From the NCBI GenBank assembly GCA_918797485.1, contig CAKKNE010000005.1, positions 1 to 64,000 of the forward strand: 64,000 nucleotides of DNA, read 5' to 3'. This document shows, in pieces, positions 6,626-47,465 of the stretch. How positions within the stretch are numbered: position 1 is the stretch's first letter; the number at the start of each line of letters is the position of its first letter. The DNA comes from Pelagomonas calceolata (lineage: Eukaryota > Sar > Pelagophyceae > Pelagomonadales > Pelagomonadaceae). The notes under the pieces were generated by a model. It was not told the origin of the DNA. It saw only the letters and a list, made by a program, of their open reading frames with translations, and did no database searches. Position numbers and translations under genes: made by a program.

Positions 6626-7463
6626 ATGCCGCGTTATTTCTGTGATTATTGTGATGTGTACCTTACGCACGACTCCGCGCCCGGTCGAAAGCAGCACATC
6701 CGGGGCTGGAAGCATCGGAAAATGTGAAGCAGTACTACGAGCAGTACATGAAGCAGTTTTATGAACAAAATAGCGGCATGGGAATGATGCCTCCGGGTAT
6801 GGCGATGGGCTCGCTCGGAGCGCTGACCGCGGGCGCGCGCCCGTGGGTCTGCTCGGTCATCGCCGGGCGTCGCCCCACCATTAGCGCTCGTGGGCGCGCC
6901 CGGCTCGATCCCGCGGCCACCGCTCGGCTACCCGCGGCCGCCGCTGGGCGTGCCTCCCCCTATGGGGTCGATTCCTGTGTGGAAATCAACCAGTGTGTCG
7001 GCGTGCACCCGACAATTCTTCGCTAAGTCATTTCTCGGCAATGACGCGGCCGTCCTGGCTCGGTCGAGCGGCGAGGAACCGGCATCGCCACGCCATCGAG
7101 CAGGTGTAGCGTCGATGGCGTGGAGGACGACGCGATGATTCAGCACGAACGCGCCGTAAAATTTTGATTTCCACACAGGTCGATTCCTCCGCCGCCGCGG
7201 CCGCCGGGCTTTCCCCCCGGTATGGCCATGCCGGGCATGCCTCCGATGGGCTTCCCGCCGCCGCCGGGCTCGCAGCTGTGTGGAATCAACCAGCGAGCTA
7301 GGCTGTCTCATCACGTCGATGGCGTGGGGCGCCCGAAATTTTATTTCCACGCAGGCTCGATCCGCCACCGCCAGGATCCGTGCGCCACGGCGCCCGTTCC
7401 CCATGTCAGGCTTTCGGGAGGACCTCCTCCCCGCCGGGGCCGCCTCCGCCGCGCCCTCCCTAA
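6626..7463 (+). CDS. SNRPC: U1 small nuclear ribonucleoprotein C
   Basis: U1C binds the U1 snRNA/5' splice site duplex early in spliceosome assembly. The start [17 protein letters not shown] carries the C2H2 finger (C6, C9, H24, H30) with the typical CDYCD-YLTHDS and GWKHRK stretches. [15 protein letters not shown] follows, then a Pro/Gly/Met-rich tail ending [10 protein letters not shown] at TAA 7461-7463. The tail reads in one frame only after removing an ordinary intron (6797-6884) and two introners (6977-7178 and 7278-7354). Between HRKM and VKQYY at 6724 the frame is off by one base with no room for an intron; the codon for V starts on the last base of ATG, so one base seems to be missing. 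The gene ends tail to tail with the giant minus-strand gene, stops one base apart. Confidence 0.85.
6797..6884 (+). other. Ordinary spliceosomal intron in U1C
   Basis: GTATGG donor, CTGAC branch-point-like site at about 6820 and TTAG acceptor, 88 nt. Removing it moves the frame from MGMMPP to [17 protein letters not shown], which the flanking frames require. No terminal inverted repeat is seen. Confidence 0.6.
6977..7178 (+). mobile_element. Introner element 1 in U1C
   Basis: The element runs from GTGTGGAAATCAA to TTGATTTCCACAC, perfect 13-bp inverted ends, followed by the acceptor AG at 7177-7178. GTCGATTCCT stands directly before it (6967-6976) and directly after it (7179-7188), a 10-bp direct repeat that reads as a target-site duplication. 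Splicing from the upstream GTCGAT, or from the second GT of GTGTGG at 6979, keeps the proline-rich U1C frame. Inside is the shared core CGTCGATGGCGTGGAGG. Confidence 0.85.
7278..7354 (+). mobile_element. Introner element 2 in U1C, short copy
   Basis: GTGTGGAATCAACC at the left, ATTTCCACGCAG at the right, 77 nt. It shares CGATGGCGTGGGGCGCCCG with the element at 45859-46020. The flanking GGCTCG is repeated on both sides, a degenerate target duplication. With the donor at 7278 the exons join into a tail ending [10 protein letters not shown]. Confidence 0.75.
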
Positions 7464-7464
7464 A

Positions 7465-10400
7465 TCACCGGTTTCCCCGCGCGAGGAGGTCGAGCGTCAG
7501 GGCGATGGGCTGCAGCGTCGGCGCGGGCGTCGGCGGCGCGACGCACATGGCGCAGCGCGACGGCGGCGCGTCCGTCACGGCGGCGTCCAGCGCCGCGGCC
7601 GGATTACATTCGTAACCAGCGTCGCAGAAGACCATGTGGCGGCGCATCGCCCCGGGCACCGGAAGACGCCGCGCTCGATGATTGCGGAGCAGTGCCAGAC
7701 GGCGCTCGTCCGCGGTTTCGCACTCACGAGGGGCGAGCAACTATCCACGAGCTGCGCCGTGTCAAAGGCCTCCGCGGTGTAGTGGCGCTGCCGCTCCACG
7801 ACGAGCGGCTTGACGACACTTCCGAGACCGAGGCCCTCGAGGCAGAGCGCCTCCGTGTGCTCGCCCAGCAGTCTGTTCGCCTCCGGTGCGGCCCAGATAG
7901 CTTTCCCGGACTCAGCGTTCACGAAGGCTGGATCGTCGTAGTAAACGCATTGAGTCGCGGCCTCGGCCGCCGTCGTCGCGCCGCAGACTGGCGGCGCCGC
8001 GGCCTTGACGGAGACGAGGCCTCCCGCGTCGAAGACGTACACATACGCTTGGGCGGCCTCGACGTTCCCATGAATCCAAACGTGGTAGTCAGTGGCCCGA
8101 AAGGGCTTGATAGAGATAAACTCAAGACCTTCACCGGCAATGGTGTGGGTCGCGTCGCCACAGTTCGGCCTGCCCGCGCTCACCAAGCACCGCTCGTCGT
8201 CGTCGGCTCGAAAGCCTAGGCGCAAATCAAGGTCCGTGCCGGCCGTCGCCCACACGAGCGCGACGACAACTTCGTCGGCCGCCAGCTGGCCGGTCAAGGG
8301 TAGCAGCGCCGTGCCCGGGTGCGCGAGCGTCGCTTTTGTCGTACCCGCGCAAGCACCATCGCAAGTCGCTTCGACGAAGGCGCCGTCCGGGACAGTGCCA
8401 AAGAATGAAGCGTCAGCGGCGCTCGCACCACGGCGAAGCGGCGCCCGACGCCGCCGTATCCACAACGACTAAGCTGGAGCCGTCGACGAGGTCGAGACCA
8501 CACGTCCCGCTGACGGACTCGAGGCCCCCTTTGCGCGTACCGGCAGATAGACACACGACAGTGGCCGTCGCGGACGCAACGGGCGTCGTAGGCATGCTCG
8601 TGGTAGGTTGCGGTGTGGAAGGTTTCGATGTCGGCGCGGCCGTCGGCGCCGTGGACAGCGTCGGCGCCAACGACGGCGGCGCCGTCGGCGGCGGCGACGG
8701 TTGGGTCGTAGGCAGCGACGTCGGCGTCAATGACGGCGCGGGCGACGTAGGTGGCAGTGTCGACGGCATCGGCGACGGCGGTGTGGTCGGCAGCGGCGAC
8801 GGAGCCAGGGTCGGATTTGACGATGGCAGATTCGTAGGAGCGACCGAAGGCAGCGGCGACGGCGCGTGCGTAGGACTCGCAGACGTCGGTCCGGCGGTCG
8901 TCGGCGCGCGAGTCGGGCGCGGAGTTGGCACCTTGGGCGTCGGCGCCGCCGTCGTCGGGACGTAGGAGGGCGCATACGACGGCTTGAGCGAGGGCGCGGC
9001 GGTCGGCGCCGACGACGCCGGCGATGGCGTCGGCGCAAGCGTCGGGGCCGAGGTCGGCGTCAGCGTCGGCGCCGGCACCGGAAGCGCCGTCGGCGCAAGA
9101 GACGGCGCGGACGTCGGGATGGACGATGGCCGCGGCGTCGGGGTCACGCTCGGCGCTGGACTCGGTGCCGGTGTCGGCCGCACGGACGGCTGCGCTGAGG
9201 GCTGCGGCGTCGTCGGAGAGGCGGTCGAGGGAGGTGATGTCGAAGGGGGCAGCGTCGCCGAGCTTAGATAGGCGGCCCCCACAACGTGCGCCGAGACCGG
9301 TTGGTCGCAGGCGCAGGGCACGCCTTCGTACGCGTCGACGCGGAGCTCCGCGCCCGTCGCCGCGGGAAGCCCGGAGCAGGTCCCGTAGCCGCCCCCATAG
9401 ATGCGCGCGCCGGCCCAGCACTGGCACGTCGACGACGCCGAGTACTTCGCCGCGTAGATCGCGCAGAGGTCCACGCCGTGCGCCGCACAATATAACGCGG
9501 AGACGGGCGCGTGCGTCGTGCCGTCCGCGCAGTGGTCCCCGATCGAACTGTTGGACGACGAGGCCCAGTAGTAGCCCGAAGACGTAGGGAGGGCGGTGGC
9601 GCCGAGGACGACGCTCTTCGTGTACGTCGAGTAGCCCTCCTTGGAGAACGATAATGAGGCCGTGCTCCCGTGCTGGCGGACGTCGTAGGGCACCTCGATG
9701 GCGTAGGCGCCGTCGGTTTTTGTAGTGACGGCGTCCGCGTAGGCGCACCCGGCGCGCCGACCGACACCGAAGCGTCGCTCACGCCCGCCGCCCAGCAGTC
9801 GCCCCCGCAGCCCGCCTTGACGACTCTCCCATGAAACACGTGCGTGAGCTGCGTCGTCGCCTTGATTTTCAGATCATGGCTCACGCCCGCCACGGTGCAG
9901 ATGCCGCAACTTACGCCATCCAATGAAAACGTCAACGCGCGTCCCGTCGACGCACCCGGGGCAGAACTCGAAGGTCGCGAGCGCTTGCGCCACCGCGTCG
10001 GCCGCGCCCGCAGTTTGTACTAAGAGGTGCCGTTCGCATAAGAGGACGAGGTGACCAGGGAATTATCCGAGAAGGTCAAGGACCCGAAGCCGTCGACGGA
10101 CGCCCGCACGACGACGTCGCAGTCCTTGGCCCTCTCGTCACTCTGCAAAACGACGACGTTTTCGTACGTCTTGCACGCGCCCGACGTCGCCGCGACGTCA
10201 AAAACATCGGTGCTGCAGCCCGTCCAGCCCGTCGGGCAGGTGTCGGCGCCCCAGCCGGGGACCGCCGCGATCGCCGCGGCTTTACTCTGGCACGTCGCGA
10301 CGCCGTCGAGCTCCCTTATACAATTGTCGTCCGCCGGCTGATCGATCCAGCGCGCGCAGCCCTCGCAGCTCAGGGGTTGCAGGAACTGGTGCAGCGCCAT

Positions 10401-13400
10401 GACGCAGCCGTTCGAGGGGGCGCTCGTCGTCGGCGTCGACGACGGCTGCGGCGTCGTGGGCGCGGGCGTCGGCGTTACCGAAGGCGCGGGCGTCGGTCTT
10501 ACCGAAGGCGCGGGCGTCGGTCGCAAGCTAGGACTCACGGACGGGTGGGACGACGGCCGCGGCGAGGGCGCCGTCGGCGTCGACGACGGTTGTGCCGTCG
10601 GAAGCGACGTCGGCAGGGCCGTGGGCGCCGGGCAAGTCCCGTTCGCGTCCTCTTGCGCGACGCCGCAAGCCGTCGCGGCGCACGGCGTCTCGTAGAACAG
10701 GCTGCTCACGTGGTCGGGAAACCCGTCGTCGTCGTCGTCGATCGTCAGGACCATGTCGGCGTCGACGCACCAGCCGAGGTACTGGTCGAACGCCTTGGCG
10801 AATTGGAACATCGAGTGCATCCGCGTGACGCTGGGAAAGCTCCAGGCGCTGAGCGGCTGGTTGAATTTCGTGGCGTTTTTGAACATCCCGTCCATGGCCG
10901 TGACGCTGGCGAGGTTCCAGGCGTCTAGCGGTCTGTTGAATTTTATTGCGTCTGCGAACATCCAAGACATGTCCCCGACGTTGGAGATGTCCCAATCATT
11001 GAGCGACTGGTTGAAGGATCGTGCACCCTCGAACATCTCCTCTAGCCGCGTCACGCCGGAGACGTCCCACGCGCCGATGGCCTGGTTGAACGCGAAGGCC
11101 CAGTCGAACATCCCGTACATGTCCTTGACGTTGGAAACGTCCCAGTTGCCGATCGGCCGGTTGAACGCGAAGGCGTCTTCGAACATATATCTCATATCCG
11201 TGACGCTCTCGACCCGCCATTTGCCGATGTCTCGGTTGAACGACGAGGCGCCGAAGAACATATCATACATCGTCGTGACGCTAGAGGTATCCCACGCGCT
11301 AATGTCGTCGTTGAAGGAGGCGGCATGGGCGAAGAGAGCCTCCATGTCCGTCACCGCGCTGGTCACCCACGTCGAAATGTGGCCGTACGTCGCCTCGGCG
11401 GCCGCCGCGTCCGCGAGCCACGCCGCGACGGCCGTGCGGATGGTGGTGTCGTCCATGGCGTAGCCCGTGCAGCCATCTTGCGTGACGCCGCACGACGTCG
11501 CCGCGCACGGCGTCTCGTAGAACAGGCTGCTCACGTCGTCGGGCTGGTCGTTTATCGCCAGGACCATGTCGGCGTCCACGCACCAGCCGAGGTCCTGGTC
11601 GAACGCCTTGGCGTAGCGGAACATCGAGTGCATCCGCGTGACGCTGGGAAAGCTCCATTCACTCAACGGCTGGTTGAACGACGTAGCGTTGTGGAACATG
11701 CCGTCCATGGCCGTGACGCTGGCGGGGTTCCAGGCGTCTAGCGGTTTGTTGAACGCCGAGGCGTCTTGGAACATCCAAGACATGTCCGTGACGCTGGAAA
11801 TGTCCCAATCATTGAGCGACTGATTGAAGGATCGCGCCCCCAAGAACATGTCCTCGAGCGTCGTCACGCCCGAGGTATCCCACGCGCCGATGGCCTGGTT
11901 GAACGCGAAGGCGTCCTCGAACATTCCGTACATGTCCTCGACGTTGGAAACGTCCCAGCCGCCGATCGGTCGGTTGAACGCGTAGGCGTCGTCGAACATG
12001 TACTTCATCGACGTCACGCCAGAGACATCCCACGCGCCGATGTCCCCGTTGAATGACGGGGCGTCGAAGAACATATCATACATCGTCACGACGCTAGAGA
12101 CATTCCACGCGCCGAGGTCCTGATTGAAAGACGAGGCGCCGACGAACATGTAGTGCGTCGTAGTGACGCTAGAGGTATCCCATGCGCCGATGGGCTGGTC
12201 GAAGGCCGAGGCGTCTTCGAACATGAATTCCATCGTCGTGACCTTGTCGACTTGCCAGCCGCCGATCGGTCGGTTGAACGACGAGGCGCCCCAGAACATC
12301 TCATACATCGTCGTGACGCTAGAGGTATCCCACGCGCTAATGTCGTCGTTGAAGGAGGCGGCATGGGCGAAGAGAGCCTCCATGTCCGTCACCGCGCTGG
12401 TCCCCCACGTCGAAATGTGGCCATATAACGCCTCGGCGGCGGCCGCGTCCGCGAGCCACGCCGCGACGGCCGTTCTGATGTTGCCGTCGGTCATGACGTT
12501 GTTCACGGTCGGGCGCGGCGCGGGCACAGGCGTCGGCAGGGACGTGGGGACCGCCGACGGGGCGTAGCTCGGCGCGCCGGTCGTCGGACGGGACGTGGGC
12601 AGCGGCTTCGGGGCGTAGGACGGCGCGGGCGTCGCGGGCGTCGGCAGCGGCGTCGGCCGCGACGACGGCACGGCGGACGGCGTGGAAGTCGAGGGAAGCG
12701 GCGTCGGCGCCGGCACCGGCATGGACGTCGGCGCCGAGGTCGGCACGAGGGACGGCGCGCGCGACGGCGCCGCAGAAGGATGCGCGGTGGGTCTCGGCGA
12801 CGGCAGGCGCGAGGGCGCCGGCGATGGTTTCAAGGAAGGCGGCGACGAGCTTGGTGAAGAGGACGGCGCCGCCGTCGACGGACGCGCCGTCGACGGTATC
12901 GAGGACGGCATCGGCGACGGTAGGAATGATGGTTCCGGCGAAGGCTGGGATGTCGTAGGATACGGCGACACGGAGGGAGCCGGCGTGGGGTAGGGCCAGA
13001 ACTCCGTGATCGGTTCTAGTAAAACCCTGTCGTTGCCTTCGTCCACCAGATCCGTTGGAGGGAGCCTATCTAGTAAAGTGGCGTTCTCGAAGGGCGCGTA
13101 GTCGCAGGTCAGCACGCCTCGCGCTTCGTTCGGCGGGACCCGCTTTCCCGTAGAAGCGAGGAGCACGGACAGCCCAATCACGACGAGGGCCACGCCAAAC
13201 GACAGGGCGAGGGACCCGCTCACGGAGCTGTTCCGATGATGTAAAATACGTTTGCGGTCCCAACCATCGACGATCTTCGTGCGGACGTAGTGGGACGCCT
13301 TGACTAAGCCCATCAAAAGAATCAGCACGACTAACCCGCCGTAGACGAGGAAGAACCAGTTCGTCTCGATTAATACCTTCAGGGAGTTGCAACAGGGCCT

Positions 13401-15377
13401 TGAGTTGAGACACCCATAATAATCAACCTTGCAGCCACAACTCCCCTGCTCGTCGTCATATTCCCAGGCGAACACATTGGACGATGCGTCGTCGCACGTC
13501 ACGGACCAGCCTTCGCCCGCGCCTCTTACATAGGAAGAATGCCGCCGCGCGTCGGACGCGTACTTGCGACAGCCGAGCACCGCATCCCACCAGTCCTCGC
13601 CTAATAGTTGCACGACGTCGTCGCAGCGCCTCTCAATAAGCGGTGGCAAGCGCGCGACGGCGGCGACCATGAGGGCGAAGGCGATGAGTATGGACGGGAC
13701 GAGGAAGACGCCCATCCCCTCGAAGAGGGCTAATAGTCGAACGTTCTCGGTGTAACCGCCCCGCCACGCGACGGTACCAGAGAAGGCGGCGATCGCCGAT
13801 ATAATGACCGAGGCCCAGAGCGCACCATCAGAAGGCGCCGCGAACGCCGCGCCGTCCACCGCGTCTTTGTAACGCAGCGTGAGACTGGTAATGACGGCGC
13901 ACGCCATCGCAAGGATACTGAGGAACGCACCGCCCCACTCGAGGCCGCTCTGCACGGTCTCGTAGACCGTGATGATTTTTATGGTTGGCAATAGAGGCAG
14001 TAAGCCGAGTACGGCGAGGACCAACAGTGAGATCCCATGTCCTAGGAGCCAATTCATTAATTCCCGGCCGGCGGCGCCTTCCTCACCATCAAAGTACTCG
14101 GCGAAGCGCCCGGGCCGTCGTTCCGCGAGGTTCGCCGCGTGCGTCTCACCCAGCCGCCGGTTGGCTATCAAACCAGCGCCGCAGCCCAAGCATAGGATGG
14201 CGAGGAACAACCAGACATAAAGGCAGCACTCGAGCAGGCGCTGGCCCGGCGTGTCCGCGGGCGCCTCGACGCACTTGCCCTCTTCGTTGACCGCGCGCGC
14301 GACCTCGAGGGACGTCCCACCTTCCTTCAAGGCGCGCCGCGCCTCGTCCAGGCGGATCAGGCGGCGGAGCGGGGTCTCCTCCGCGAGCTGCTGGTGCGCG
14401 TGCGCGACGGGTCTCGGCTCGAAATAGGCCTCGAGGTCCCGCCGGACCCGGAGGCACGCGACGACGCAAACGGCGCCGACGAGAGCGTGCGCAAAACCTA
14501 GCAACGTGGGCGCGAGGAAGAGCGCCAGGTTCGACCGCCCGTAGCGCCAGGCGCCCGACGCGCCGAGCGCCCCACCACATAAGCAAAGTGCGGCGCCCAT
14601 CGCACCCAACACTACGATGGCCGGCTGGCGCTCGCGCACGTACTGCGCCGGCGTCTGCGTGCCGTCGAGCTTCGCCCGGTAGGGCTCGTAGGCGTCCTCG
14701 GCGGGCGCCTCCTTGCACTCCTCCCTATAAGGGGAAATCGGTGGCTCTGTATGTTCATCAGACGAGGACGAGGTATCGAGGGTCAGAGGAGGCGGCGCCT
14801 GCTCGTCGTGCTGGCGCACGGCCTCCCTTACGAGTTCGAGAGATTGATGAGCCTCCTTGCGGTGGCTCTCCCTCAAGGCGGATTGTGCAGCTTGATGAGC
14901 AGCCTCGCCGTCGTGCCGCGGCGTCCTCGGCGTTTCTTCTGCGGCGAGCTCGTCGTGTAGCTCCTGGTGCGCGTGCGCTAATGTAGCAAGCGTCTCGCGC
15001 TCGGCTGCCGCCTCTGCGCGATCCAAATCGCGTTCTATGCGACGCCGCGTCGACTTCGAGGGCGTGCTCTTTAGCACATTTTCTCTCGTTTTCGCGTAGG
15101 CCTCTTTTCTTTTACTGTGTTCCTTCTCCACCGTCTTCACGAAGGCCCGGTGCCGCGCGACGCTGCCGGGGCCCTGAGCTCTTGGTGTCGCGTCGCTCTC
15201 CTCATCCAAGGGATTGTGCACCGGTGCGTTTGTTAAGGGCGGCAGCTGCCTTGTGCGCGCGAGCTGCGCTAATGAACTACTGAGGTCCTGGCGGCGTCCT
15301 TCTTCCGCTAAATCAGCGAGGGCGCTGCGGACGTAGGTCCAGCCGGACGGCGCGACTTTCGCGACGCGCCGCGGCAT
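7465..15377 (-). CDS. Giant multi-membrane surface protein with Ser/Thr/Pro linkers and duplicated DUF285 blocks
   Basis: The main uninterrupted frame (10020-15377) gives 1785 residues. A charged cytosolic head of about 245 residues is followed by about nine hydrophobic helices between 250 and 760, for example AIVVLGAMGAALCLCGGAL and LALSFGVALVVIGLSVLLAS. Then come a PTPAPS-type linker, two blocks of 25-residue DUF285 repeats (MFxxAxxFNxxIxxWDxSxVTxM) and a second linker. Downstream frames to 7465 continue the same style: a carboxypeptidase-regulatory-like segment (TDGAYAIEVPY), a further PTPAPS stalk, a Cys-poor domain with LVWATAGTDLDLRL and a CDAGYEC/CAMC end. They are joined by one-base frame jumps near 9945, 9755, 8455 and 7700, so I take all as one gene. 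Adhesion or cell-surface sensing is inferred from DUF285 and the stalks. Confidence 0.65.
10750..12500 (-). repeat. Internal duplication of the DUF285 block
   Basis: Two long stretches inside the giant gene repeat each other. Each begins with an IRTAVAAWLADAAAAE unit, continues with GHISTW-TSAVTDMEALFAHA, carries six to eight DUF285 repeats, and ends with AKAFDQ-LGWCVDADMVL and SSLFYETPCAAT. The two copies are close to identical at both ends and differ in repeat number, indicating duplication followed by repeat gain or loss. Confidence 0.75.
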
Positions 15378-15708
15378 TTCTTTATGCTGTTGGCCCAGCG
15401 GGTCACTTGGCTTTGGTGTTTATGCTTATCCGTTAAGCCGCTGCATCGTTTGCGCGTGTGGTGCAGCGATGACGTGCTACTCCGCGCTTCTTATGATGCA
15501 AGGGCAGCCGGCGGCTGTGCAGGATTGCGCGCCTTTACGGTCGCGCTGCGCGCCCGTTGCGACGGCGGTTTGCGCCGGGTTCGCAGATCACCGACCCGAG
15601 TTACGCCTCTCCCCCGAGGTCCGGAGCCCTCGGATGACTATTGGCACGCTGCGGAAGGCTGGGACCGGCGTTCGCTGGTTTTCCGAGCCGCGACTCCAAA
15701 GTGGGAGT
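15378..15708. other. Intergenic stretch between the giant gene and the esterase gene
   Basis: Holds the likely 5' region of the giant gene. A plus-strand frame opens at 15384, but I see no conserved motif in it and it runs on into the antisense of the esterase gene, so I do not call a gene. Confidence 0.4.
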
Positions 15709-16992: not shown

Positions 16993-17103
16993 CGCTGCGT
17001 CCGTCGCGGCATGTCGCTGTGGTTTTGCTCGGGGGTGCTCTGGTGGTGGTGTGACGGCTTTGGGCAGCACTGCTGCGTCGGCGGCGTCCGCAGCAAAGAC
17101 CTT

Positions 17104-35690: not shown

Positions 35691-36418
35691 TCAGAACAGG
35701 TCCCCCTTCGCCAGCTTGTTGGCCAGGATGATCCCCTTGACCTTGCCCTTGAACTTGCGCCTCGCGTTGAACTTCTTCATCGTGTCCAGCGTCTTCGCGA
35801 GGTTTCTGGAAATGAGCTCGTGGTCGCCGACCATGAACCAGGGGTGTCTCAGGGCCTGGGAGGCCGTCAGCCGCTTGTCGGGGTCGACGACGAGCATCTT
35901 TTTGATCAAATCCTTGGCGTCGTCCGAGACCTGGTCCCAGTACTGGGGGTCGAAGGCGTAGTCCGCGGCCTTGATCTTGCGGTACAAGACGGCGTGGTTG
36001 TCGTCGTGGAACCTGCGCGGGCGGCAGCGCGTCGACCTCCACGCCCCACGTCGTCGAGCTGGCGTCGCGTCGATGACGTTATGCTTCGGCAGACGCGCGG
36101 CGAGTCGGCGACGAATCGACGCGACGCCTCCGTGCCGGTCCCTCGCCGCGATGGGGCCGGCGCAGTCGCGTCGTCGTCGCCGCGAAATAACTCGGACGCG
36201 GCGCCGCGCGGCGGGTAGCCCCCGAGCAGAATGTAGACAATAACTCCACACGACCACATGTCGACGGCCGTGCCGTACTTCTTGCCCTTGAGGATCTCCG
36301 GAGCAACATAGCCGGGCGTACCACATTGGGTATCTAAGGATTTGCCCTCGACCTTCTTGGCGAAGCCAAAATCCGCGAGCTTGATATCAAAGTCGTTGAA
36401 CGGCGACTTCAGTAACAA

Positions 36419-36452
<34 letters not shown>

Positions 36453-36865: not shown

Positions 36866-37635
36866 CTGCGTTGTTTTGTGTGAGTGGGAGCGCTCTCTCG
36901 GTCGCGCGCGCGGTCCACGGCGTCGTACGCGCGTCCGGGCTCTCGGCGCTCTCGCTCTCTCTCTCGCGCTCTCTCATGTATGCGGTCCGCGCGCGGCGGG
37001 CCGCTTGCGCAGGCCGGCGTTCGCGCGCGCGCCTTTGCGTCTGTCCGGCCCGCGGGCCGCGTCGCGCCCGGCGCCGGCATTTATACGGGCCGCGCGCACG
37101 GATGCGGTCCGCGGGCCGCGGCGCGCAGGCCGCCGGCGCCCCGACGGCCGCGCGGCACCAGAAACAGCTCGAAACAGCTCGTGGCTCCACTTGCTGTTTT
37201 TACGGCAGGCGTCGACGCGCCGTTGATATCACACGCGGCGGCGCACGCCACAGCCCATCGCTCACTTCTCAGACCGCGACCAGCAGAGCTGTGCACCACA
37301 GCTGCGTCCCTGGCCTGCTCTGCCTTTGGCTTTCAGGGCATTGCTGCTAGTGTGTCACAGGCCGCTAGCCCGCACAAGCCCCTCCCCAAAGGACGCAGTA
37401 TATCAGTCAGACCACGCTTCGTTTTTGAATCACCATCCCGAGCTAGCGCCCGACTCGTCCAGCAGCCGTCGAGAGGACACATTGTGGGCCGTCTAACGTA
37501 GCCAATCAGCAAGCACCAAGGCAGCCAACGCAAGGAAGAGAGCGAGCCAGGCCTGCAGCCAAGCCGGGGCAGCAAGCTCAGCAGCAGCGCGCAAGCAGGG
37601 CAGCAGCCAGCTAGCCAGGGCAGAGGCAGCCACCC
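36866..37635. other. Intergenic/5' region between kinase and Na+/H+ exchanger
   Basis: Probably holds the missing kinase first exon and two promoters. A CT-rich run with repeated CTCTCGCTCT lies at about 36940-36975. A CTAG element is at 37346-37368. No further gene can be supported. Confidence 0.4.
37346..37368 (+). promoter_or_regulatory. CTAG-bracketed promoter element, copy 5
   Basis: GCTAG, TGTGTCAC, AGGC, CGCTAG, about 270 bp before the exchanger start codon. The core differs by two bases from the consensus. Confidence 0.5.
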
Positions 37636-40425
37636 ATGCGGCCGGCGCTCCGCCTGCTCCTCGCGGCCGCCTTTGTGATACCCATCAATTCAGATGAGGA
37701 CGCCTGCGCCGTTATACTGAAGGAGGAGGCCTCTCGACGCGCGTGCGCCGCGCTCGCCACGCACGGCCTCCTGCCGCGGCGCGCCCTGGGAACAGCCACG
37801 CACGCCCCTCATCCGCACGAGGAGCACCACGAGGAGCACCACGAGGCGCACACGTACGAGGCGGGCGTGTATTTTGGCGCTTCGCTACTGATCGGAGCCT
37901 TATGTTTGTTCATCATCAGCCGCTTTTATCAAGCGGTGCCCTACACGATGGCCGTGTTTGTCATTGGTTTAGTATTAGCCTTGGTGGACCACGCGACGGA
38001 AGAAAGGTTATTAGGGGTCTATTCTAGATCTATGGGTCGATGGCGCCGCATGAACCCCGAACTGCTCTTATGTGGTTTTCTACCTTTGTTATTATTTGGA
38101 GATGCCATGCAGATCAATTTACATACCTTCTACACGAAGATGTACCGGTGGCTTGCTGCTCGCGACCGCGGGAGTGTTGATCTCGACCTTTGCCACCGCC
38201 TATTTTGCAGCTTTATTACCCTACGAGTGGAGCTGGTTCTTCCGGTGCATGTTCGGCTCGATCGCCGCAGCGACGGACCCCGTAGCAGTCGTAGCTTTGC
38301 TGAATGCGTTGGGCGCGTCCCCCGGCCTCACGATGACCATCACCGGAGAGTCGCTTTTTAATGATGGCACGGCCATGGTCTTGTTTTTACTGTTCGATTC
38401 TCTAGCCCAAAAACACAAGAAGTACATCTCTGGGGCGGGAAACCCGCCCTACGAGGTTATCGAGTTCTTTGCAAGGATGGTCCTTGGAGGTTGTTTTATT
38501 GGATTGGCCTTTGGCGGCGCGGCGTTGCTGTGTCTACGGTTGTGCCAGCGCAAGTTCGACGAGGTCTCGACGACATTGCAAATAACAACAACAATCATAG
38601 TAGCGTATGCCTCGTTCTACTTCTCGGAAATCGCCTGCGGGTGTTCGGGAGTGTTAGCTACCGTGATGGCCGCCCTCTGTGTGGCGAGGTACGGCTGGGT
38701 CTACGTCGACGAGGCGCACACGGTGCACGCGGTCTGGGAGTTTCTCGAGCACGTGGGAAATACCGTGGTATTCATGCTCGCCGGCTCCCTGACGGGCAAG
38801 ATCGTCTGCGAGAACTGGAAGGACTCTGGGGGTAAGGGTGATTGGCTGGACGTGGCCGACTTCGGCTGGTTACTATTTACGTGGTTCGCTTTGGTGATCA
38901 TAAGATGTTTGACCATTGCCATGCTCTGGCCGCTCTTGAAATGGTTGGAACAGCGGTATAGTCATGCGCACCAACTCGAGTGGAAGGACGGCGTCGTGAT
39001 GGCCTGGGGCGGGCTTCGGGGCGCTGTTGGACTAGCTCTCGCATTGGTCGTGCAGGAAGAACGGGCCCATTCGGATGAAGCGAAGAGTGCGGAACAGTTA
39101 CTCTTTTTAGTGAGTGGAATTGCTATGTTAACACTATTAATAAATGGGTGGTCCTGCAAGGCGTTACTGGACTACCTGGGCATGACCGTTGAGAGTAGTG
39201 ACACGAGGCACGTGAGAGCCTACGCGAAAGGCAGCGGCCCATGCCGCGGCCATCGCGTTGCACGACATCGTGGCGAAATATGGACTGGACGTCCACGGCG
39301 CCGCGCAAGTCGAGAAGAGTCAACTGCAAAGGCAAGCGACGCAGCGCTGGAACCGCGTCCGGGCGGCCACACGACTAGGCGTCGTGCAGGAAGCCTTGGC
39401 CTACGACACGGGTGTTTATGGAGGCAACGTTGGCGAGGACGACTTGGACGCCGCTGATAGGGAAGCTCGCACGGAAAACAACGAACAGGTCCTCCAGAGG
39501 ATGCGGGGCATGTTTTTGAGAGCTCTCAAGGCCGAGTTCTGGGAGATGATCGAGAAGGGCTTGGTGCCCGCGGTTCCTTCGCCCGCGCAAATATTGCCGT
39601 TTTTCGTGTGGCGTCGAGCTGCAAAATGTGCACACGAAATTGCATCATTTTGAAGTGGTCCTGAGGAAGAGTACGGAGTCGATCCCGATTTATTCGCAAA
39701 TCGAGAAATGTGTGGAGTTGTTCGTGTCCTGCTCGAAGGGCTGGAGAAGCGAGGCTGTTTAGGTGATAGGATCATATCTTCGCTGTCTCATTGGTCGACC
39801 GCAACTGAGCGTTATTATTTAATAACGGCCTTCCATGCGGCCTATATGAGGACCTCAAAGCATCTGGACGAGGTGTTTGCGTTCTTTGTACAGAGTTCGG
39901 CCTTTGCCGTTGATGCCCGCGAGCAATTCAAGGAGGAGATCGATTCGCAAATAAAACAATGTGAAGATGAGGCGGCGAAGTTGCCGGCGCATGCGCGGGC
40001 TCGAGTCGACGCTCTACTCGCTGGCGGAGGTGGTCTTGGTGGGCGTCAAGCACCACATCTTCGAGGGCTTCCACCGCAAAGGGATCATCACGTCCAAAGA
40101 CCGGGATGAGCTCGGCGAGGGCCTCATGCAGCTCGAGCACCACCTCGAGAACTGTCGGGAATTTGCCCAGGCGGAGTTTCGACGAGCGGCGCGCGCGAGC
40201 CAGCGGCATTTATCCTTAAGACGGGGCGCTTCACGCGTGGCCGACATCGAGGCCTCGTCCATAAAACAGGAGCTCACGGTCATCGACCAACTGCAGGATT
40301 CGATTATGGACCGGCGCGCGGGCGTGACGGCCGCGGCGGCGACGGCCGCTTCGCCTCAGGCCGGGCGGGCGCTGGCCCACATGGAGCGGGCCCAGGACCT
40401 GTCGGGGCGGCACCTGACGCACTGA
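37636..40425 (+). CDS. Na+/H+ exchanger, CPA1 family
   Basis: Signal-peptide-like start MRPALRLLLAAAFVIP, a His/Glu-rich loop, then the exchanger core: LLLCGFLPLLLFGDAMQ, AATDPVAVVALLNALGASP with the ion-binding Asp, GESLFNDGTAMVLF and WGGLRGAVGLALAL. A long soluble tail of about 400 residues is rich in helices (ALHDIVAKYGLDVHG ... RIISSLSHWSTATERYYL ... IKQELTVIDQLQD). It exchanges H+ for Na+ or K+ at a membrane; the long tail resembles plant SOS1 and NHE8 types. The frame jumps by one base near 38150, 39235, 39613, 39735 and 40000, always between clearly coding parts. Five breaks in one gene could also mean a decaying copy. Confidence 0.75.
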
Positions 40426-40463
40426 AATTCATTACCTAATGTGTATAATACCGAACGAAAATC

Positions 40464-41131
40464 TTACTGCGGGGGAGGCTTAAAATTCGCCGTCAGCTCT
40501 TCAACCTCGGCGAGCCCGATCTCGTCGGAGTCGCCCGCGAAGCCGTGCTCCTCGGGCAGGAAGAGCATGCAGTGGCACTCGTGGCGCTCGCGCCTGTGTG
40601 GATATCAAATTTCGGGCGCCCCACGCCATCGACGCGACGTCGTCCCCGTACTGCATCTGCTCGATGGCGTGGAGCTTCCACGCCATCGACGCGAGGTTGC
40701 ATCCATTCTGCGTCCGCTCGATGGCGAGATAACCTAACTCTGTTTGATGTCCACGCCGGCTCGCGCATGGGCACGCAGGGGCAGTTCCAATACCCCGACT
40801 TCGCTTCCGCCTCCTTGTCGACGTAGTTGCGGCAGGGGCAGAGCGGCGCGCCCAAGGCTGCCTTGTGTTCGGCCAGGCCGCGGATGACGACCGCAGGGAC
40901 AGAAGGTTCCGAGCAGTATTTGGTCCCCGACACTTTGACGTAGCGGTTGCTGAAGGCCGTCATCGCCGCGAGGGCCTTTTGCACGGGGACGGGCGTGTCG
41001 TCGTCCGCCGCGGGGTCCGACGACGAGCTCCGCAGCACTGTCCTGGCGTTATGTCGGGAGAGCGCGTAAAAGCCGCTGGCGGGCTGCAAGAGGAGCGCGG
41101 CGAGGGTCCACCGCTGGCGGCGCCGCGCCAT
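40464..41131 (-). CDS. ftrB: Ferredoxin-thioredoxin reductase catalytic subunit, nuclear and plastid-targeted
   Basis: The catalytic subunit reduces plastid thioredoxin with electrons from ferredoxin, using a 4Fe-4S cluster and a redox disulfide. The cysteines are all present: YCSEPS, then APLCPCRNY, YWNCPCVPMRE and, after an intron, ECHCMLFL. The start MARRRQRWTLAALLLQPASGFYAL is a signal peptide with an F at the predicted cleavage site (ASGF), the bipartite plastid presequence of heterokonts, followed by a Ser-rich transit part. The intron at 40594-40754 is an introner; the second exon ends EVEELTANFKPPPQ at 40464. The CTAG element at 41315 lies about 185 bp upstream. Confidence 0.88.
40594..40754 (-). 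mobile_element. Introner in the FTR gene
   Basis: On the minus strand GTGGACATCAAA ... TTTGATATCCACACAG, inverted ends with one mismatch. GCGCGAGC stands on both sides (40759-40766 and 40586-40593), an exact 8-bp target duplication. A GT donor at 40754 adds four residues (PARE); a GC donor at the duplication edge would give the consensus CVPMRERHECHC. The inside holds a hairpin at 40661-40689, CGATGGCGTGGA facing TCCACGCCATCG. Confidence 0.85.
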
Positions 41132-41314
41132 GGGTGATTTTTCTCTGCCTTGCTGAAGCTGGGCAGTGTAGCGCTGGCTGGGTCTGAGAATGCGGTTAAT
41201 TGTGTGCGCCGCTGCCCACTGCAACGAGGAGTCCTGTGGATACCGTGGCCAGTATAGAAGCGGCCAGCGCTGGCGTTTGACGGCTCAGAGCGCGTTTTGG
41301 CAGCAGCAACCAAT

Positions 41315-41337
41315 GCTAGTGTCTTACAGGACGCTAG
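41315..41337 (+). promoter_or_regulatory. CTAG-bracketed promoter element, copy 6
   Basis: GCTAG, TGTCTTAC, AGGA, CGCTAG, about 185 bp upstream of the FTR start codon and just after the stop of the next minus-strand gene. Confidence 0.55.
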
Positions 41338-41375
41338 CCACAACGTTTTGCATCGGGAGGCCATGCATGTGCAAA

Positions 41376-42425
41376 TTACCGTACCCCGTCCCCGCCATCG
41401 CCGCGAGCCGGTCGCTTGAAGAACCCTCCCTCCGGGCAGTCGTCCCGCCCGAAGCCCGGCGACCACCACCACGAGTCGCCGAGTTGGCACGGGTACGTGT
41501 TGCCCGCGTAGCGGCCGTGGATCGGCGCGCGGTGCTCCGAAATGGCCGGGCCGGCGCGCAGGATCGAGGCAATGACCGAAAACGAGGAGCCGTGGACCGC
41601 TAATATCCCCACGTGCGCCATCGCCCGCAGGTCGCCGAGGGGGCTCCGGCCCTCGTGGGACGACGACGGTGCGGGGCCCGAGGCTCTGGACGATTTTGAT
41701 CGTGTCGCCGGAGCGCTCGCCGAAGACCACGACCGTCGCGTTGCTCCCGGCCAGCAAGTCGTGCAATTTCTCTCGCGTAGCGCTCCAGGTGCCCCAGCGC
41801 CGCGCCTCCCTCCGGCACGCGGACGTGGACGCCGACGGCGCGGCCGTAGCCTTCGGGCGCCGGCCCCGCGTCGAACGCCGCGCGCCACTCCTCAGCTACT
41901 GCTCGCCGCGCCTTCTGACACGTGGCGTTCGTCCGGAAATCTGGCGGCGGAGGCACGTCGCCGCAGAGCCGCGTCAACTCGTCCTGGCAGTTGTCGCGGC
42001 GGATTGATGCACGAGCGGTGGGATAGATCGCGTGGGCGACGCCGTAGACTGCTGCTTTCGCCTCGACGCCGCCCTGGTGCGAGGCGCCCGCAGGTCGACC
42101 AGGATCGTTCACGTAGCAGTACGCGGCCGGTTCTAAGGTCAACGTGCGCACCGTGCCCTAGAAGGAGCTGAACGACTTTAGGGTCCCCGTACGCAGCGGT
42201 GAAATGAAGGAGCGTAACTCCATAATCCTCGTGTCTTTTGTTGGCGTCCCAACCAGCATCTAGAAAATCGCGCACGGCCTCGACGTCATTCATGAACGAG
42301 ACGTCGCCCTTCTGAAGTGCCGAAACCACCGCGTCCATTTTCTCCTGAAGATTACCGCTGCGTCGCGCGTCGCTTCGCGCCAGAGCCGCGCCGACGGCGA
42401 CGATCAAGCACCGCCACATGACCAT
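41376..42425 (-). CDS. Ankyrin-repeat plus glycosyltransferase-like secretory protein, frame-broken
   Basis: The start MVMWRCLIVAVGAALARS is a signal peptide. An ankyrin part follows (VRDFLDAGWDANKRHEDYG, TLLHFTAAYGDPKVVQLLL). After a frame jump near 42150 comes a Cys-containing part (RDNCQDELTRLCGDVPPPP ... NATCQKARRAVAEEW) with GRAVGVHVRVPEG, then NATVVVFGERSGDTIKIV, MAHVGILAVHGSSFSVIAS and YPCQLGDSWWWSPGF. The HVRVPEG and HGSSFS-type motifs recall fucosyl- or other Golgi glycosyltransferases, but the match is loose. At least three one-base frame changes are needed. It could be two genes; I favour one because the spacing leaves no promoter. Confidence 0.5.
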
Positions 42426-42608
42426 GGTGACTAGCCTAGCTCTTAATCCCTCGCGACCGCGGCGAAGCCGCTAAGCCTCGAAAGCGCCTTGTTATGAACC
42501 CTTATCGGTACCGCGCCGGCACAGATATCTGCAGACTAGCGCGGATAGCGCCAAGAAAAATTCTGAAAACCCGATTTGTTGGCGGAACAAACTCTTTTTA
42601 CACAACAT
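42426..42608. other. Spacer
   Basis: 183 bp between two minus-strand genes; no motif recognised. Confidence 0.4.
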
Positions 42609-43991
42609 CTACGACGACTTCGCCGCATCCAACATCCCCTCGACGTCAGAAAACTTCGCCCGCGGCGCCCCGTTCCTCGCGTTCGCCTTCTCGACCCCAT
42701 CGATCCGACGCCAGTCGGCCCACGACGTGCCCTCCCCATAACCGGCAACACCACTAGCAGCCAGGTCCTCGAGCACGGCCGCGGCCGTCTCGCGCGCGTC
42801 GGCGACGTTCGAGCCGACGATGCCCGTCGGCCCGCGCTTCACCCATCCCGAGCAATACAACTTCGGCGCGACGCGACTGCCGACCTGGGCGTAGGTCCCC
42901 GCCGGGCCGTCTTGAGGCCTGGCGCGCCTGCCGTCGGGGCAGGGCGGGCTCGCCGTGTAGCCGACGGCGCAGACCGCCAGATCGCATTCTATGCTTTCGA
43001 GGACGCCGGTGCCCACGGCTGTCTGCGCATTCACATCACCCTCCAAGACGCACTTCTCGAAGACGACCGCTCCCAGACGGCCCTTGGCTCCTTCCTCGAA
43101 GGCCACGGGCCGCCTCAGAAACCGGAGGTGCACCTCCCGCTCCGCGGTATTCGTCGAAGCAGCGACCTGATCGAGGAACTTGCGCTTGCGTTTCAGTGGT
43201 CGTGCTTTCCCTTCTTCTATTGACGCTTCCGTGTCGCCCGCTTCCAGTTCGGCGGGATCGATGACCAGGGCGGCGTTCTCGAGCTCCGTGAGCTCGCGGA
43301 CCTCTTTCGTCGTAAAGGCCGCCTGCGTCGCGCCGCGCCGCCCGACGACGTGTATAAGACGCTTCGACGGGAGCCTCTGCAGCGCCTCAAAGGCTGTTGA
43401 ATGGATGTCGGTCGCGTCGAGATGCGATGAAGGCGCGGCTAACAAGCGCGCGCAATCTAAAGCAACGTTGCCGTGGCCTATGATGACGCTTCGGAGCTGG
43501 TCGCTCACGTCAGGTAACTGTAAATGGGAAAACGTCGGCTCAGCGTTGTACCAACCGACGAAGGCCCGCGCGTTGACGACACCTTCCAGTTCCGCGCCGG
43601 GCAGGTCCAACTTCCTCGCTAAATCGCAGCCCGTCGCCACGACGACGGCATCATATAGATTCATGAGGTCGTTTAGAGGTACTACGGGACCGGTATGAGA
43701 TGGGGCATCAGCCGGATGCCCGACGAAGACGTGGCCCGCGTACGAGAACCTCTCTGATGTCGCGACCTCTTCAAAGTCGTCCTGCACGCTCTTCACCTCG
43801 GGATGGTCGGGCGCGACGCCGTACCTTACCAACCCGAAAGGTGTCGGCCACCTATCGAGGATCGTGACGTGTACATTTTTGCTGTCCCTCAGGAGGTACT
43901 TCGCCGTGTAGAAGCCGCCCGGGCCGCTTCCGACGACGGCGACGCGCGGCGACGGCGTGCTGCTGAAGGCTCGGCGTGTGAGGCGCAGCAT
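42609..43991 (-). CDS. FDXR: NADPH:adrenodoxin oxidoreductase, mitochondrial
   Basis: 460 residues, single exon, normal length for the family. Leader MLRLTRRAFSSTPSPR is an arginine-rich mitochondrial presequence. FAD site VAVVGSGPGGFYTAKYLL, then PTPFGLVRYGVAPDHPEVK, the family hallmark. NADPH site VIIGHGNVALDCARLL and HVVGRRGATQAAFTTKE. Near the end SGWVKRGPTGIVGSNVADA closes the FAD site. It passes electrons from NADPH to mitochondrial ferredoxin for Fe-S cluster and haem synthesis. Confidence 0.93.
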   Translation of the reverse strand: MLRLTRRAFSSTPSPRVAVVGSGPGGFYTAKYLLRDSKNVHVTILDRWPTPFGLVRYGVAPDHPEVKSVQDDFEEVATSERFSYAGHVFVGHPADAPSHTGPVVPLNDLMNLYDAVVVATGCDLARKLDLPGAELEGVVNARAFVGWYNAEPTFSHLQLPDVSDQLRSVIIGHGNVALDCARLLAAPSSHLDATDIHSTAFEALQRLPSKRLIHVVGRRGATQAAFTTKEVRELTELENAALVIDPAELEAGDTEASIEEGKARPLKRKRKFLDQVAASTNTAEREVHLRFLRRPVAFEEGAKGRLGAVVFEKCVLEGDVNAQTAVGTGVLESIECDLAVCAVGYTASPPCPDGRRARPQDGPAGTYAQVGSRVAPKLYCSGWVKRGPTGIVGSNVADARETAAAVLEDLAASGVAGYGEGTSWADWRRIDGVEKANARNGAPRAKFSDVEGMLDAAKSS

Positions 43992-44358
43992 TTGCTGTGG
44001 TCTGCTGCTTGCTGCAGCGCACGCGTGCCGAGGCGGTTTTCTGCGGTTCGCAGCGGTACTGAGTGGTCTCGGTGGAGCCCTGACGTCCCGTCCTTTCAGC
44101 GCTAATGCCTCCGCGTATTAGTATGGGGGTGGCAGGCCAAGTCTCAGTGGGTGAGGCCAAAGCGGGTTCTCGATGCGCGTGGCTCGTACAGTCATCTTGA
44201 GACCTCGTTGTATCAATGACAAACGGGAAAACAAGCGTCGCAGCTCTTCATTTCAAAAACCCGACCGCAAAAAAAATCGCTGAGCGACGATCAATAATCA
44301 CGCTGTAGCAGCCGTAATTTGACACTAGACAGTCGTCGAGCAAGTCAGAGAAGGCATC
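43992..44358. other. Divergent intergenic region
   Basis: Between the FDXR gene (minus) and the ubiquitin-eS30 gene (plus). AT content is higher than in the genes, with CAAAAAAAATCGC near 44270. No repeat or CTAG element seen. Confidence 0.4.
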
Positions 44359-45265
<907 letters not shown>

Positions 45266-45284
45266 AAACCACATCAACTTAGTA

Positions 45285-47465
45285 TCACAGAGTAAACGTC
45301 GGCGCCTGCGCCCCTCGACCCGCGGCCTCGAAGGGCAGTCTGACCAGAGGCGAGTCGAACGCGTCGCGCTTGCGCTCCTCGACCAGCCACGCTATACACG
45401 ACTCCACGGAGCTCCGGGACTGCGCATAGATTTGTGAACATGCGTCCCGGTCCGACGCGTCCACGTCACTGGTAGAAATCGGCTCGCCGAAGCGAAAATA
45501 AAACCGCCGCGGGTTCGTGGGCACGGCCAGCGGAAAGCGGAAGTCCTCCGTGCGGTTCGCCCAGCGCCGCGCCGACGGAATGTTCGGCTGCTCGCCGGTT
45601 TTGTCGCGCAGAAAGGTCACGGAGTCCGCCGCGCCCACCGCCCCAAAGGGCACGATCAGCGCGTCAAACTTGGCCGCCGCCCGCACGAAGTCCGTCTCCT
45701 CGGGCCAGAACAACTTGTTGTTCTCACCCTTGCCATGATTTGATTCTCTGACACCGCCCGGGAACAACAACACGCACTCGTCGCGCTGCAGTAAGCGTAT
45801 GAAATTCCGCGGCGTCACTTCCACGGCCCCGAACTTCTGGAAGAAGGACTCGTCGCCTGTGTGTAAATCAACCAGTGAGTTAGGTATTGCCATCGAACCG
45901 ACGCAGTCACCGCGACTAACTCGCGTCCATGGCCTAAAAACTCCACGCCATCGAGCTGATGCACTTACAGGGACGAAGTTGCGTCGATGGCGTGGGGCGC
46001 CCGAAATTTGATTTCCACACAGCTCGTTGCCCTGGCCCGTAAACGAGTCGCGGCGTCTCCCGTCGTTCCACCAATTGGGCGACGGCCGCGGCCCCTGTTG
46101 TTGGTTACCGTCTATTAGGGAAGGCGCGTTCGTCGCCACCGGGTGCGCCAATCCCCTTATGAGTAGGTCGCGGTCCCGCAAAAATTCGTCCACCAGTATG
46201 GAGAGATCAGCACCAAACAACTGGTGGTTGCCCACGAGCAGGACCGGTCGTCCCTGTTGGGGCGAGGGCACGCCTCGTAACCCTTCGACCACTCTCCCTT
46301 CAACGGTCGAGAAGAACTTCGGCGACACGAGCCGCCTCAAGGGGTCCACGACGCTGTCGCGCGTTTCTTTGATCTGCGTCGCGTTGGGCCTCACGAAGTC
46401 GTCGACTGCTCTTTGCGCTTTCTTAAGCTTGCGCGCGCGGATCTCGGCCCCATAGAGTGCTTTGGAGCTTCTCAAACACTGACCGAAGTCGAGGCGCTGC
46501 GGGTCTACAAGGACCGCGTGGCCGCCGCCCCGCAAGGTGATGGCTTCCGCATCGAGTTCCTTCTTCAGTCGTTGCGCTTCGTCCTTGGATGGTAGAAACC
46601 GATCATCTTCCCCACAGATGACCAAGAACTTGGTCGAGCGCCCCTTTCTTCTGAGGCGCCACAACCTTTCATTCGTCTTGGCACAACCACCATCGAGCCA
46701 ATTTTCTACTCGATGCTTCAGCGTTTCCGGAGGGACCAAGTCAGCCAAAGCCTGGGCGCCATTGACAGCTCTTTCTAGTCCCGAGAAATCGAGCGCGTCG
46801 AGAACTCTTGCAGAGACTTCGAGACCATGGACCGTCCGACGCTAGTAAACCGACGGCGGCGCCGATCGCGCCCGCGTAGGCGACGCCTTCTGCCGAGGAC
46901 ACTAATCTACCGCCGAGGGGCCAGGGGCGTCCTATCATAAGAGGTGGCCGGGTTGACTAGTACGACGCGCTCTTAGTTTGTCTATTTGTCTGGAGTCGCT
47001 CAGCTTCAGCGCGGCCGCGGTGGCGATGAGTCCGCCCATCGACTCGCCCGCCAGGATACCGCCCTTGTCTCGCACGAATTGTGACACCGCTTCCACCACT
47101 TCATCAAACGAACTCCGATCCTCCCCGTCGACCCAGCAGTACCACGGGTCGTAGGCATTCTCAATTAAGTTCGGGAGCTGCGCCGCGACGGAGATACCTC
47201 TAAATTCGATGCCCGGGACGTAGAGCAGCGGCTCCCTTTCTACATCGTCGTCGGCGTCGAGGACGCGCGTGAAGCGCACGTTGCCTATTTTTAAGGTGGC
47301 TTCCCTTTGTAGTATCGCCTCGGCGCTGTCGAACATCTCGGTCGTCGTCGTCGACGTCGCTCCGAGGCGGTGCAGCGCCGCGTGGCGCTCCAATGCCGCG
47401 TGACGGCGTGGTGCGGTGAATGCAGTGCATGAGCTGACGAGGAGCAGCAGCCATTTGTGCGCCAT
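45285..47465 (-). CDS. Plastid alpha/beta hydrolase-acyltransferase, phytyl ester synthase-like
   Basis: Start MAHKWLLLLVSSCTAFTAPRR is a signal peptide with the CTAFTAP cleavage motif of heterokont plastid import. The first half is an alpha/beta hydrolase (LLYVPGIEFRG, nucleophile elbow GGILAGESMGGLIA, later FLVICGEDDRFLPS and GGGHAVL). The second half is an MGAT/DGAT2-type acyltransferase (VLLVGNHQLFGADLSILVDE, then VTPRNFIRLL and CVLLFPGGVRES). This two-domain order is that of plant PES1/PES2, which make phytyl esters and triacylglycerol in the plastid. Frame jumps near 46960 and 46815 separate clearly coding parts. An introner lies between GQG and DESFFQKFG. Confidence 0.8.
45859..46020 (-). 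mobile_element. Introner in the acyltransferase gene, opposite orientation
   Basis: On the gene strand it runs GTGTGGAAATCAAATTTCGG ... CTGGTTGATTTACACAC then AG. Compared with the U1C copies the interior is reversed, the GGGCGCC block now next to the donor side. Flanks GGCAACGAG and GGCGACGAG form a 9-bp target duplication with one mismatch. Using the GT at 46018 keeps the frame and adds NELC. Confidence 0.85.

What the first reader, a model, noticed from the sequence alone, without database searches (positions are those of the whole stretch)
6967..46030. Introners with inverted ends and target duplications in three genes
Elements at 6977-7178, 7278-7354, 40594-40754 and 45859-46020 share ends GTGTGGAAATCAA/TTGATTTCCACAC, an inner CGATGGCGTGG core, and direct repeats of 8-10 bp (GTCGATTCCT, GCGCGAGC, GGCRACGAG). 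Each sits where protein homology demands an intron. This is the signature of DNA-transposon-made introns reported for Aureococcus (Huff and colleagues, 2016); here several can be read in one window.
Basis: partly seen in the sequence, partly recalled or inferred. Interest (0 to 1): 0.75.

Follow-up and report, generated by a model that had tools for sequence, protein, structure and literature searches.

The report
Jumping DNA that makes introns
Four copies of a short jumping-DNA element sit inside three genes of a tiny ocean alga, and the sequence indicates that each is cut out of the message as an intron; intron-making elements of this kind were already known.

Summary
The four elements are MITE-like, with 15-bp inverted repeats CTGTGTGGAAATCAA/TTGATTTCCACACAG and 8-bp target duplications. 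This is a family of known kind (Huff-type introners).

The mechanism was tested from sequence. The first target copy supplies the donor (GT or GC); the inverted repeat supplies the acceptor on either strand (CACACAG, with a branch-point-like TTGAT). Removal is exact. In a sample of 84 elements, 44 had confident reading frames; all 42 of these that end in AG fit (GT 27, GC 15). Genome-wide, 49 of 1731 exact ends fall in a class that allows no such donor on either strand (798 expected), and 8 in a second such class (175 expected). In ferredoxin-thioredoxin reductase, exact removal restores an ungapped CPCVPMRERHECHCML motif.

Not found in the papers searched: the donors pair with the canonical U1 RNA no better than random GT/GC sites in neighbouring exons. 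This bears on a published puzzle about GC-AG introns in Aureococcus. No transposase with these ends was found (four families searched). No RNA reads or other strains were available.

The parts
6967..7178 (+). Introner 1 as an intron: target copy 6967-6974 (GTCGATTC, GT donor) plus element 6975-7178; second target copy 7179-7186 stays in the exon. In the U1-C-like gene.
   Evidence: Boundaries and target copies; C1 copy of the gene reads into a proline-rich tail in the matching frames
7268..7354 (+). Introner 2 as an intron: target copy 7268-7275 (GCTCGCAG, GC donor) plus element 7276-7354; second copy 7355-7362 (5 of 8 match). Same gene.
   Evidence: C1 copy keeps one frame across it. Not among the 84 sampled elements (an indel in its end hid it from the script)
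40594..40766 (-). Introner 3 as an intron: element 40594-40758 plus target copy 40759-40766 (sense GCGCGAGC, GC donor); second copy 40586-40593 stays in the exon. In ferredoxin-thioredoxin reductase.
45857..46030 (-). Introner 4 as an intron: element 45857-46022 plus target copy 46023-46030 (sense GCAACGAG, GC donor); second copy 45849-45856. In an acyltransferase-like gene.
   Evidence: confident frame (as C1 copy L003)
6626..7463 (+). Gene for a U1-C-like protein of the U1 snRNP (zf-U1 at the N-terminus), host of introners 1 and 2
   Evidence: zf-U1 62.8 bits over residues 1-33; frames; 3' end read from the sequence
40464..41131 (-). Ferredoxin-thioredoxin reductase catalytic chain, host of introner 3
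   Evidence: FeThRed_B 122.2 bits; 1dj7 145.7 bits
45285..46841 (-). Acyltransferase-like gene (part), host of introner 4; the open frame also runs through the introner
   Evidence: PF01553 21.2 bits, below its cut-off of 23
312..379 (-). Probable decayed introner remnant, one recognisable end
   Evidence: profile hit E=4e-4, sequence shown
36026..36200 (.). Weak similarity to the introner core, no ends recognised
   Evidence: profile hits E=1.5e-6 and 4.9e-5 with high composition bias
60570..60682 (.). Weak similarity to the introner core, no ends recognised
   Evidence: profile hits E=0.0014 and 0.0044

Best explanation
These are copies of a non-autonomous cut-and-paste DNA transposon (MITE) that survives almost only as introns. 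Insertion duplicates 8 bp of target. If that 8-mer begins with GT or GC on the coding strand, its first copy becomes the 5' splice site. The inverted repeat reads TTGATTTCCACACAG at the 3' end whichever strand is transcribed, giving a branch-point-like TTGAT, a short pyrimidine stretch and the AG. Intron = first target copy + whole element; the second copy restores the exon, so the protein is unchanged. Shown from sequence: anatomy, target duplications, frame preservation, the GY rule, both orientations, the restored reductase motif. Inferred: splicing in the cell, the branch point, and a transposase acting in trans (not found).
For: Frames: 43 of 44 confident insertions preserve frame if the intron is target copy + element; the exception (L065) has its AG one base later and shows the frame shift that predicts. 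Donor: 42 of 42 confident insertions ending in AG have GT (27) or GC (15) at the first target base, background 18.6%, p=2e-31. 82 of all 84 have GY on at least one strand; random 8-mers 31.7%. Genome-wide: 49 of 1731 ends in the class H......D (798 expected) and 8 in GR.....D (175 expected). The GY end follows the gene strand, not element orientation: 20 against 17, 7 unassigned. Reductase: exact removal aligns ungapped to 1dj7, 145.7 bits, against 137.3 with 12 extra bases. Phase 21/9/12 in 42, expected fractions 0.46/0.19/0.35 from GY supply with GT weighted 4.9 from the same data.
Against: No RNA evidence. Of the 40 sampled elements without confident frames, 9 do not fit. Of the window's four elements only number 4 is in the confident set. 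The sample was baited mainly with exact ends, so it favours young copies. The codon model was trained on open frames of the same loci. The broad Pfam reductase profile prefers the +12 product by 1.8 bits (124.0 against 122.2). Target duplications ending in AC are enriched too (9 of 42, 5.7% expected, p=5e-4), so some of the GY signal may be a palindromic target preference of the transposase.
Confidence: 0.93

Rival explanations
1. Same element, but spliced at the GT inside the inverted repeat (CTGT^GTGG...CACACAG^), leaving 12 extra bases (4 amino acids), as Gozashti 2022 show for one Aureococcus sp. family.
For: It also preserves frame, so frame alone cannot exclude it. Published for a family named Aureococcus sp. 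(PMC9860276, passage). Pfam reductase profile scores it 1.8 bits higher.
Against: It needs no GT or GC in the target copy, yet 42 of 42 have one and genome-wide counts agree. In the reductase it puts four residues into the CPCVPMRERHECHCML motif and loses 8.4 bits against 1dj7.
Confidence: 0.04
2. The GY rule reflects target choice by the transposase rather than selection by splicing.
For: Target copies lean to a palindrome-like G....C with AC at the end enriched (9 of 42 against 5.7%, p=5e-4).
Against: The rule is one-sided: GY on the coding strand 42 of 42, on the other strand 12 of 42 (19.3% expected, p=0.10), and does not follow element orientation. A preference for G at the ends alone would leave many GR flanks; 8 of 1731 seen in the class counted, 175 expected by composition. 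It also does not explain frame preservation.
Confidence: 0.1
3. The donor is set by an RNA hairpin: paired inverted repeats hide the GTs inside the element and leave only the 8-nt target copy exposed.
For: The intron of introner 1 folds so, -90.5 kcal/mol, z=-3.68, 0 of 200 shuffles as stable. Donors carry no U1 signal beyond GY.
Against: No compensation in the repeats: 37 single changes (27 mismatch, 10 G-U) and 3 double changes, all mismatched. Any inverted repeat folds; only one intron was folded. A variant of the main explanation, not exclusive of it.
Confidence: 0.25
4. Ordinary repeats retained in transcripts, or remnants in pseudogenes, with no splicing.
For: The frame through introner 4 is open; the window's U1-C copy has a broken frame.
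Against: Frames on both sides stay coding and in register in 43 of 44; the C1 copy of U1-C is open at that place.
Confidence: 0.02

Closest known systems
Introners of Aureococcus anophagefferens (Huff, Zilberman and Roy 2016; recalled, paper not held)
   Same: Short non-autonomous DNA transposons in a pelagophyte; one splice site carried, the other from the duplicated target; exact removal; intron length near 210 bp (as cited in PMC9481584); high share of GC donors: 39.6% of A. anophagefferens introns (PMC3033335), here 15 of 42.
   Different: Whether the end sequences are related could not be checked; no Aureococcus sequence was available.
Introner-length introns of Pelagomonas calceolata (Guerin et al. 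2022, PMC9481584, passages and outline)
   Same: Very probably the same elements: same genome by size, contig count and duplication.
   Different: The passages seen give only the length peak; ends, target duplications and splice rule are not in them. Supplementary Note 3 was not readable.
Aureococcus sp. TARA introner family 4 (Gozashti et al. 2022, PMC9860276, passages)
   Same: 8-bp target duplication; introner in a pelagophyte.
   Different: There both splice sites are in the element and 12 bp are added; here the donor is in the target copy and nothing is added.
Amoebophrya introners (PMC7789003, passages)
   Same: Inverted repeats near the intron ends, direct repeats at the borders, hairpins proposed.
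   Different: Largely non-canonical splice sites and diverse repeats there; GY-AG and one constant inverted repeat here.

Membership tests
Huff-type introner | Same repeat forms introns in many genes | tested here: met
   1731 exact ends in the genome; 44 sampled insertions with confident coding frames on both sides
Huff-type introner | Target duplication flanks each copy | tested here: met
   75 of 84 match at 6 or more of 8 bases; mean 6.96 against 3.37 shuffled
Huff-type introner | One splice site from the element, the other from the duplicated target, exact removal | tested here: met
   42 of 42 GY and in frame; reductase motif. Sequence evidence only
Huff-type introner | Spliced in RNA | not testable with these tools
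   no RNA reads
Huff-type introner | Inserted between nucleosomes | not tested
   18 exon lengths between neighbouring introners listed, too few to judge
Aureococcus sp. family 4 type (+12 bp) | Both splice sites in the element, 12 bp added | tested here: not met
   target-copy GY in 42 of 42; +12 product loses 8.4 bits against 1dj7; Pfam profile alone points the other way by 1.8 bits
TIR DNA transposon, MITE | Inverted repeats, constant-length target duplication, no transposase inside | tested here: met
   15-bp repeats, 8-bp duplications, 52-217 bp long
hAT superfamily | hAT transposase in an element with the same ends | tested here: inconclusive
   1 hAT match in the genome; its element has other ends, and no introner end with up to 3 mismatches lies in the 8 kb around it. 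The 8-bp duplication alone would allow hAT (recalled)
P-element, KDZ or MULE | Transposase of that family in the genome | tested here: inconclusive
   0 matches for PF21787 and PF18758, but controls were silent too; 0 for PF10551 with 3 controls ringing

The most novel reading that the evidence does not exclude
Donor choice in these introns does not depend on U1 base pairing. A spliceosome with a canonical U1 RNA accepts any GT or GC that sits 8 nt outside the inverted-repeat stem and ignores the GTs inside it, so the transposon's acceptor module or RNA hairpin, not the donor sequence, defines the intron. That would account for the excess of GC-AG introns and the information deficit reported for pelagophyte introns.
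Probability: 0.3. Interest if true: 0.75.

Novelty: new member of a known kind. Interest (0 to 1): 0.45.

Why it matters
Transposons that become introns are a leading explanation of mass intron gain. Here one assembly shows the survival rule in numbers: copies with intact ends sit almost only where one strand can splice them out. The surviving donors carry no visible signal beyond GT or GC, with GT favoured about fivefold over GC relative to supply (27:15 against 0.050:0.136). That makes a published puzzle testable: why algae with an ordinary U1 RNA use so many GC donors (PMC3033335).

Tried and rejected
Splicing at CT^GTGTGG (10 extra bases) breaks frame and is rejected by 43 of 44 frames. 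Splicing at CTGT^GTGG (+12) was my first hypothesis (note); it keeps frame but fails the GY rule and the reductase motif. Between I relaxed the frame-confidence thresholds: 27 of 27 fitted before (of 63 elements, 58 of which fitted in all), 43 of 44 after.

Autonomous partner: four Pfam transposase families searched in the own genome. Merlin-type and other transposases were not searched; the last two genome searches went to the GY counts.

Viral collection: 0 matches to the 20-base end; 43 loci with the 15-base end, 0 of 43 with a second end in opposite orientation at up to 2 mismatches; taken as chance.

Stem compensation: not supported. Nucleosome spacing: too few data. Native introns of this genome were not collected, so donors were compared with random exonic GY sites only.

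Papers seen: PMC9481584 outline and passages; PMC9860276 passages; PMC3033335, PMC7789003, PMC13326754 and PMC3488318 passages. Others: search listings only. Huff 2016 was not held, so what it says is recalled. That the ends and donor rule of these elements are not described in print rests only on searches of an open-access library; no supplement was read.

Full report
What is there. The four elements are real. With full inverted repeats (CTGTGTGGAAATCAA / TTGATTTCCACACAG) they span 6975-7178, 7276-7354, 40594-40758 and 45857-46022; the 8-bp target copies match at 8, 5, 8 and 7 of 8 bases. The end occurs 7 times in the window with up to two mismatches, 0.69 expected.

Where it is. The window is the first 64 kb of contig C5 of a genome of 32,445,274 bases in 8 contigs. 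This agrees with Pelagomonas calceolata RCC100: 32.4 Mb in six nuclear contigs plus plastid and mitochondrial contigs, with a 393-kb near-identical duplication at the ends of contigs 1 and 5 (PMC9481584, passages). Three C1 loci that carry introners 1, 2 and 4 (two of the loci overlap) align to the window at 98.6 to 99.3%. The species name is thus an inference. The same paper reports an intron length peak near 210 bp, which it calls characteristic of Aureococcus introner elements.

How many. The exact 13-base end occurs 859 times forward and 872 reverse; the reversed control 0 times. An element can contribute two ends, and the C1/C5 duplication counts some twice. One family has a 203-bp majority form: 33 copies, median pairwise divergence 7.4%, median identity to the majority 95.6%. 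Shorter forms share the ends, and many share the CGATGGCGTGG core.

The splice rule. From the loci and from the window I took 84 distinct elements with at least 250 bases on each side. Introner 3 entered from the window, 1 and 4 from C1 copies; introner 2 was missed because of an indel in its end. Codon usage gave confident frames on both sides of 44; of the window's elements only number 4 is among them. In 43 of 44 the frame is kept if the intron equals first target copy plus element. The exception, L065, ends CACACAA before a G, so its AG lies one base later, and the frame shift seen is the one expected. L067 (ending CACACAC) fits with donor and acceptor both moved two bases. Of the 40 without confident frames, 31 fit and 9 do not. 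All 42 confident insertions that end in AG start with GT (27) or GC (15), background 18.6%, p=2e-31; the other strand shows GY in 12 of 42, 19.3% expected. Of all 84, 82 have GY on at least one strand; random 8-mers of the same DNA do so in 31.7%.

Genome-wide. Of the 1731 exact ends, 49 have a flanking 8-mer that neither begins with G nor ends with C, 798 expected from composition. Another 8 begin with GA or GG and do not end with C, 175 expected. These two classes cannot offer GY on either strand at the expected place. Two smaller classes of that kind were not counted. The GY end follows the gene strand and not element orientation (20 against 17, 7 unassigned), which points to selection by splicing. 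Target copies ending in AC are also enriched (9 of 42, 5.7% expected), so the transposase may add a palindromic preference.

Homology. In ferredoxin-thioredoxin reductase the exactly spliced product aligns without a gap over 108 residues to 1dj7, through CPCVPMRERHECHCMLFL, at 145.7 bits. Splicing at the GT inside the repeat adds four residues there and gives 137.3 bits. Against this, the broad Pfam profile scores the +12 product 1.8 bits higher (124.0 against 122.2); the unspliced frame scores 89.8. The U1-C-like gene (zf-U1) reads into a continuous proline-rich tail on the C1 copy in the frames expected for exact removal of introners 1 and 2. The acyltransferase-like gene has only a sub-threshold Pfam hit, so its support is frame.

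The acceptor module. In 81 of 84 elements a YTNAY motif has its A followed by exactly 11 nt of intron, because it lies in the repeat itself (TTGATTTCCACACAG). As the ends are inverted repeats, both strands carry a branch-point-like motif, pyrimidines and AG, which can explain why both orientations are found. The branch point is inferred.

Donors and U1. Two U1 RNA genes were found, both with the canonical 5' end AUACUUACCUG. They score 64.3 and 58.0 bits, under the Rfam cut-off of 69.5, with E-values of 1e-14 and 1e-12; at the loose limit used (E up to 1), three control genomes also rang. Matches of introner donors to CAGGTAAGT are 3.56 of 9 for GT and 2.60 for GC; random GT and GC sites in the flanking exons give 3.48 and 2.58 (p=0.38 and 0.51). 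So no donor signal beyond GY is visible in this sample of 42. Iwata and Gotoh 2011 reported 39.6% GC-AG introns in Aureococcus anophagefferens, the largest information deficit of their 61 species and a canonical U1 5' end, and called the GC abundance an enigma (PMC3033335, passages). Donor co-option gives such a pattern directly; Huff 2016 may already say so (not held).

Hairpin idea. The intron of introner 1 folds with its inverted repeats paired and the 8-nt target copy free (-90.5 kcal/mol, z=-3.68). Changes in the repeats show no compensation (37 single: 27 mismatch, 10 G-U; 3 double, all mismatch). The idea stays open.

Mobiliser. No transposase with these ends was found in four families searched. 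One hAT element, with its own ends, lies at L025:3049-6699. KDZ and P-element searches were silent in the controls too; MULE was absent while 3 controls rang.

Relatives. A contig filed as Spirochaeta MAG MED672 (L116) carries the end and a 108-bp introner with a perfect GTCGGCCG duplication. It is probably misbinned pelagophyte DNA.

Verdict. A real introner family of the kind known from Aureococcus, already hinted at for this species. What is added is the quantified GY rule and the lack of U1 signal in the donors.

Noticed in passing
L025:3049-6699 (G000:C4:4499549-4503199): A hAT transposon with a 721-aa open frame (Dimer_Tnp_hAT 22.3 bits), a perfect 20-bp inverted repeat starting CAGGGCAGCAG and an exact 8-bp duplication TTGCTCGC. 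Its ends are unlike the introner ends.
   Followed up: partly
window 6626-6760: The U1-C-like gene, whose product helps U1 recognise donors, itself carries two introners. The window copy has a broken frame after the zinc finger; the C1 copy is open there. C1 and C5 differ mostly by gaps here (9 mismatches, 29 gap openings in 3 kb), which may be sequencing errors.
   Followed up: partly
L116 (NZGT01000054.1): A contig of a bacterial MAG (Spirochaeta sp. MED672) holds pelagophyte-type introners; probably misbinned DNA and a wild relative of this genome.
   Followed up: partly
G000:C2:2597514-2598264: Four introner ends in under 1 kb whose flanks (GGGAATAT twice, AGGAGCAT twice) break the GY rule; perhaps a small repeat array.
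   Followed up: no
L114:14-85: An introner with exact duplication GCGAGGAC lies about 1.4 kb upstream of one of the two U1 RNA genes.
   Followed up: no
window 45857-46030: Introner 4 (174 nt as an intron) has no stop in the host frame, so retention would add 58 residues rather than end the protein.
   Followed up: no
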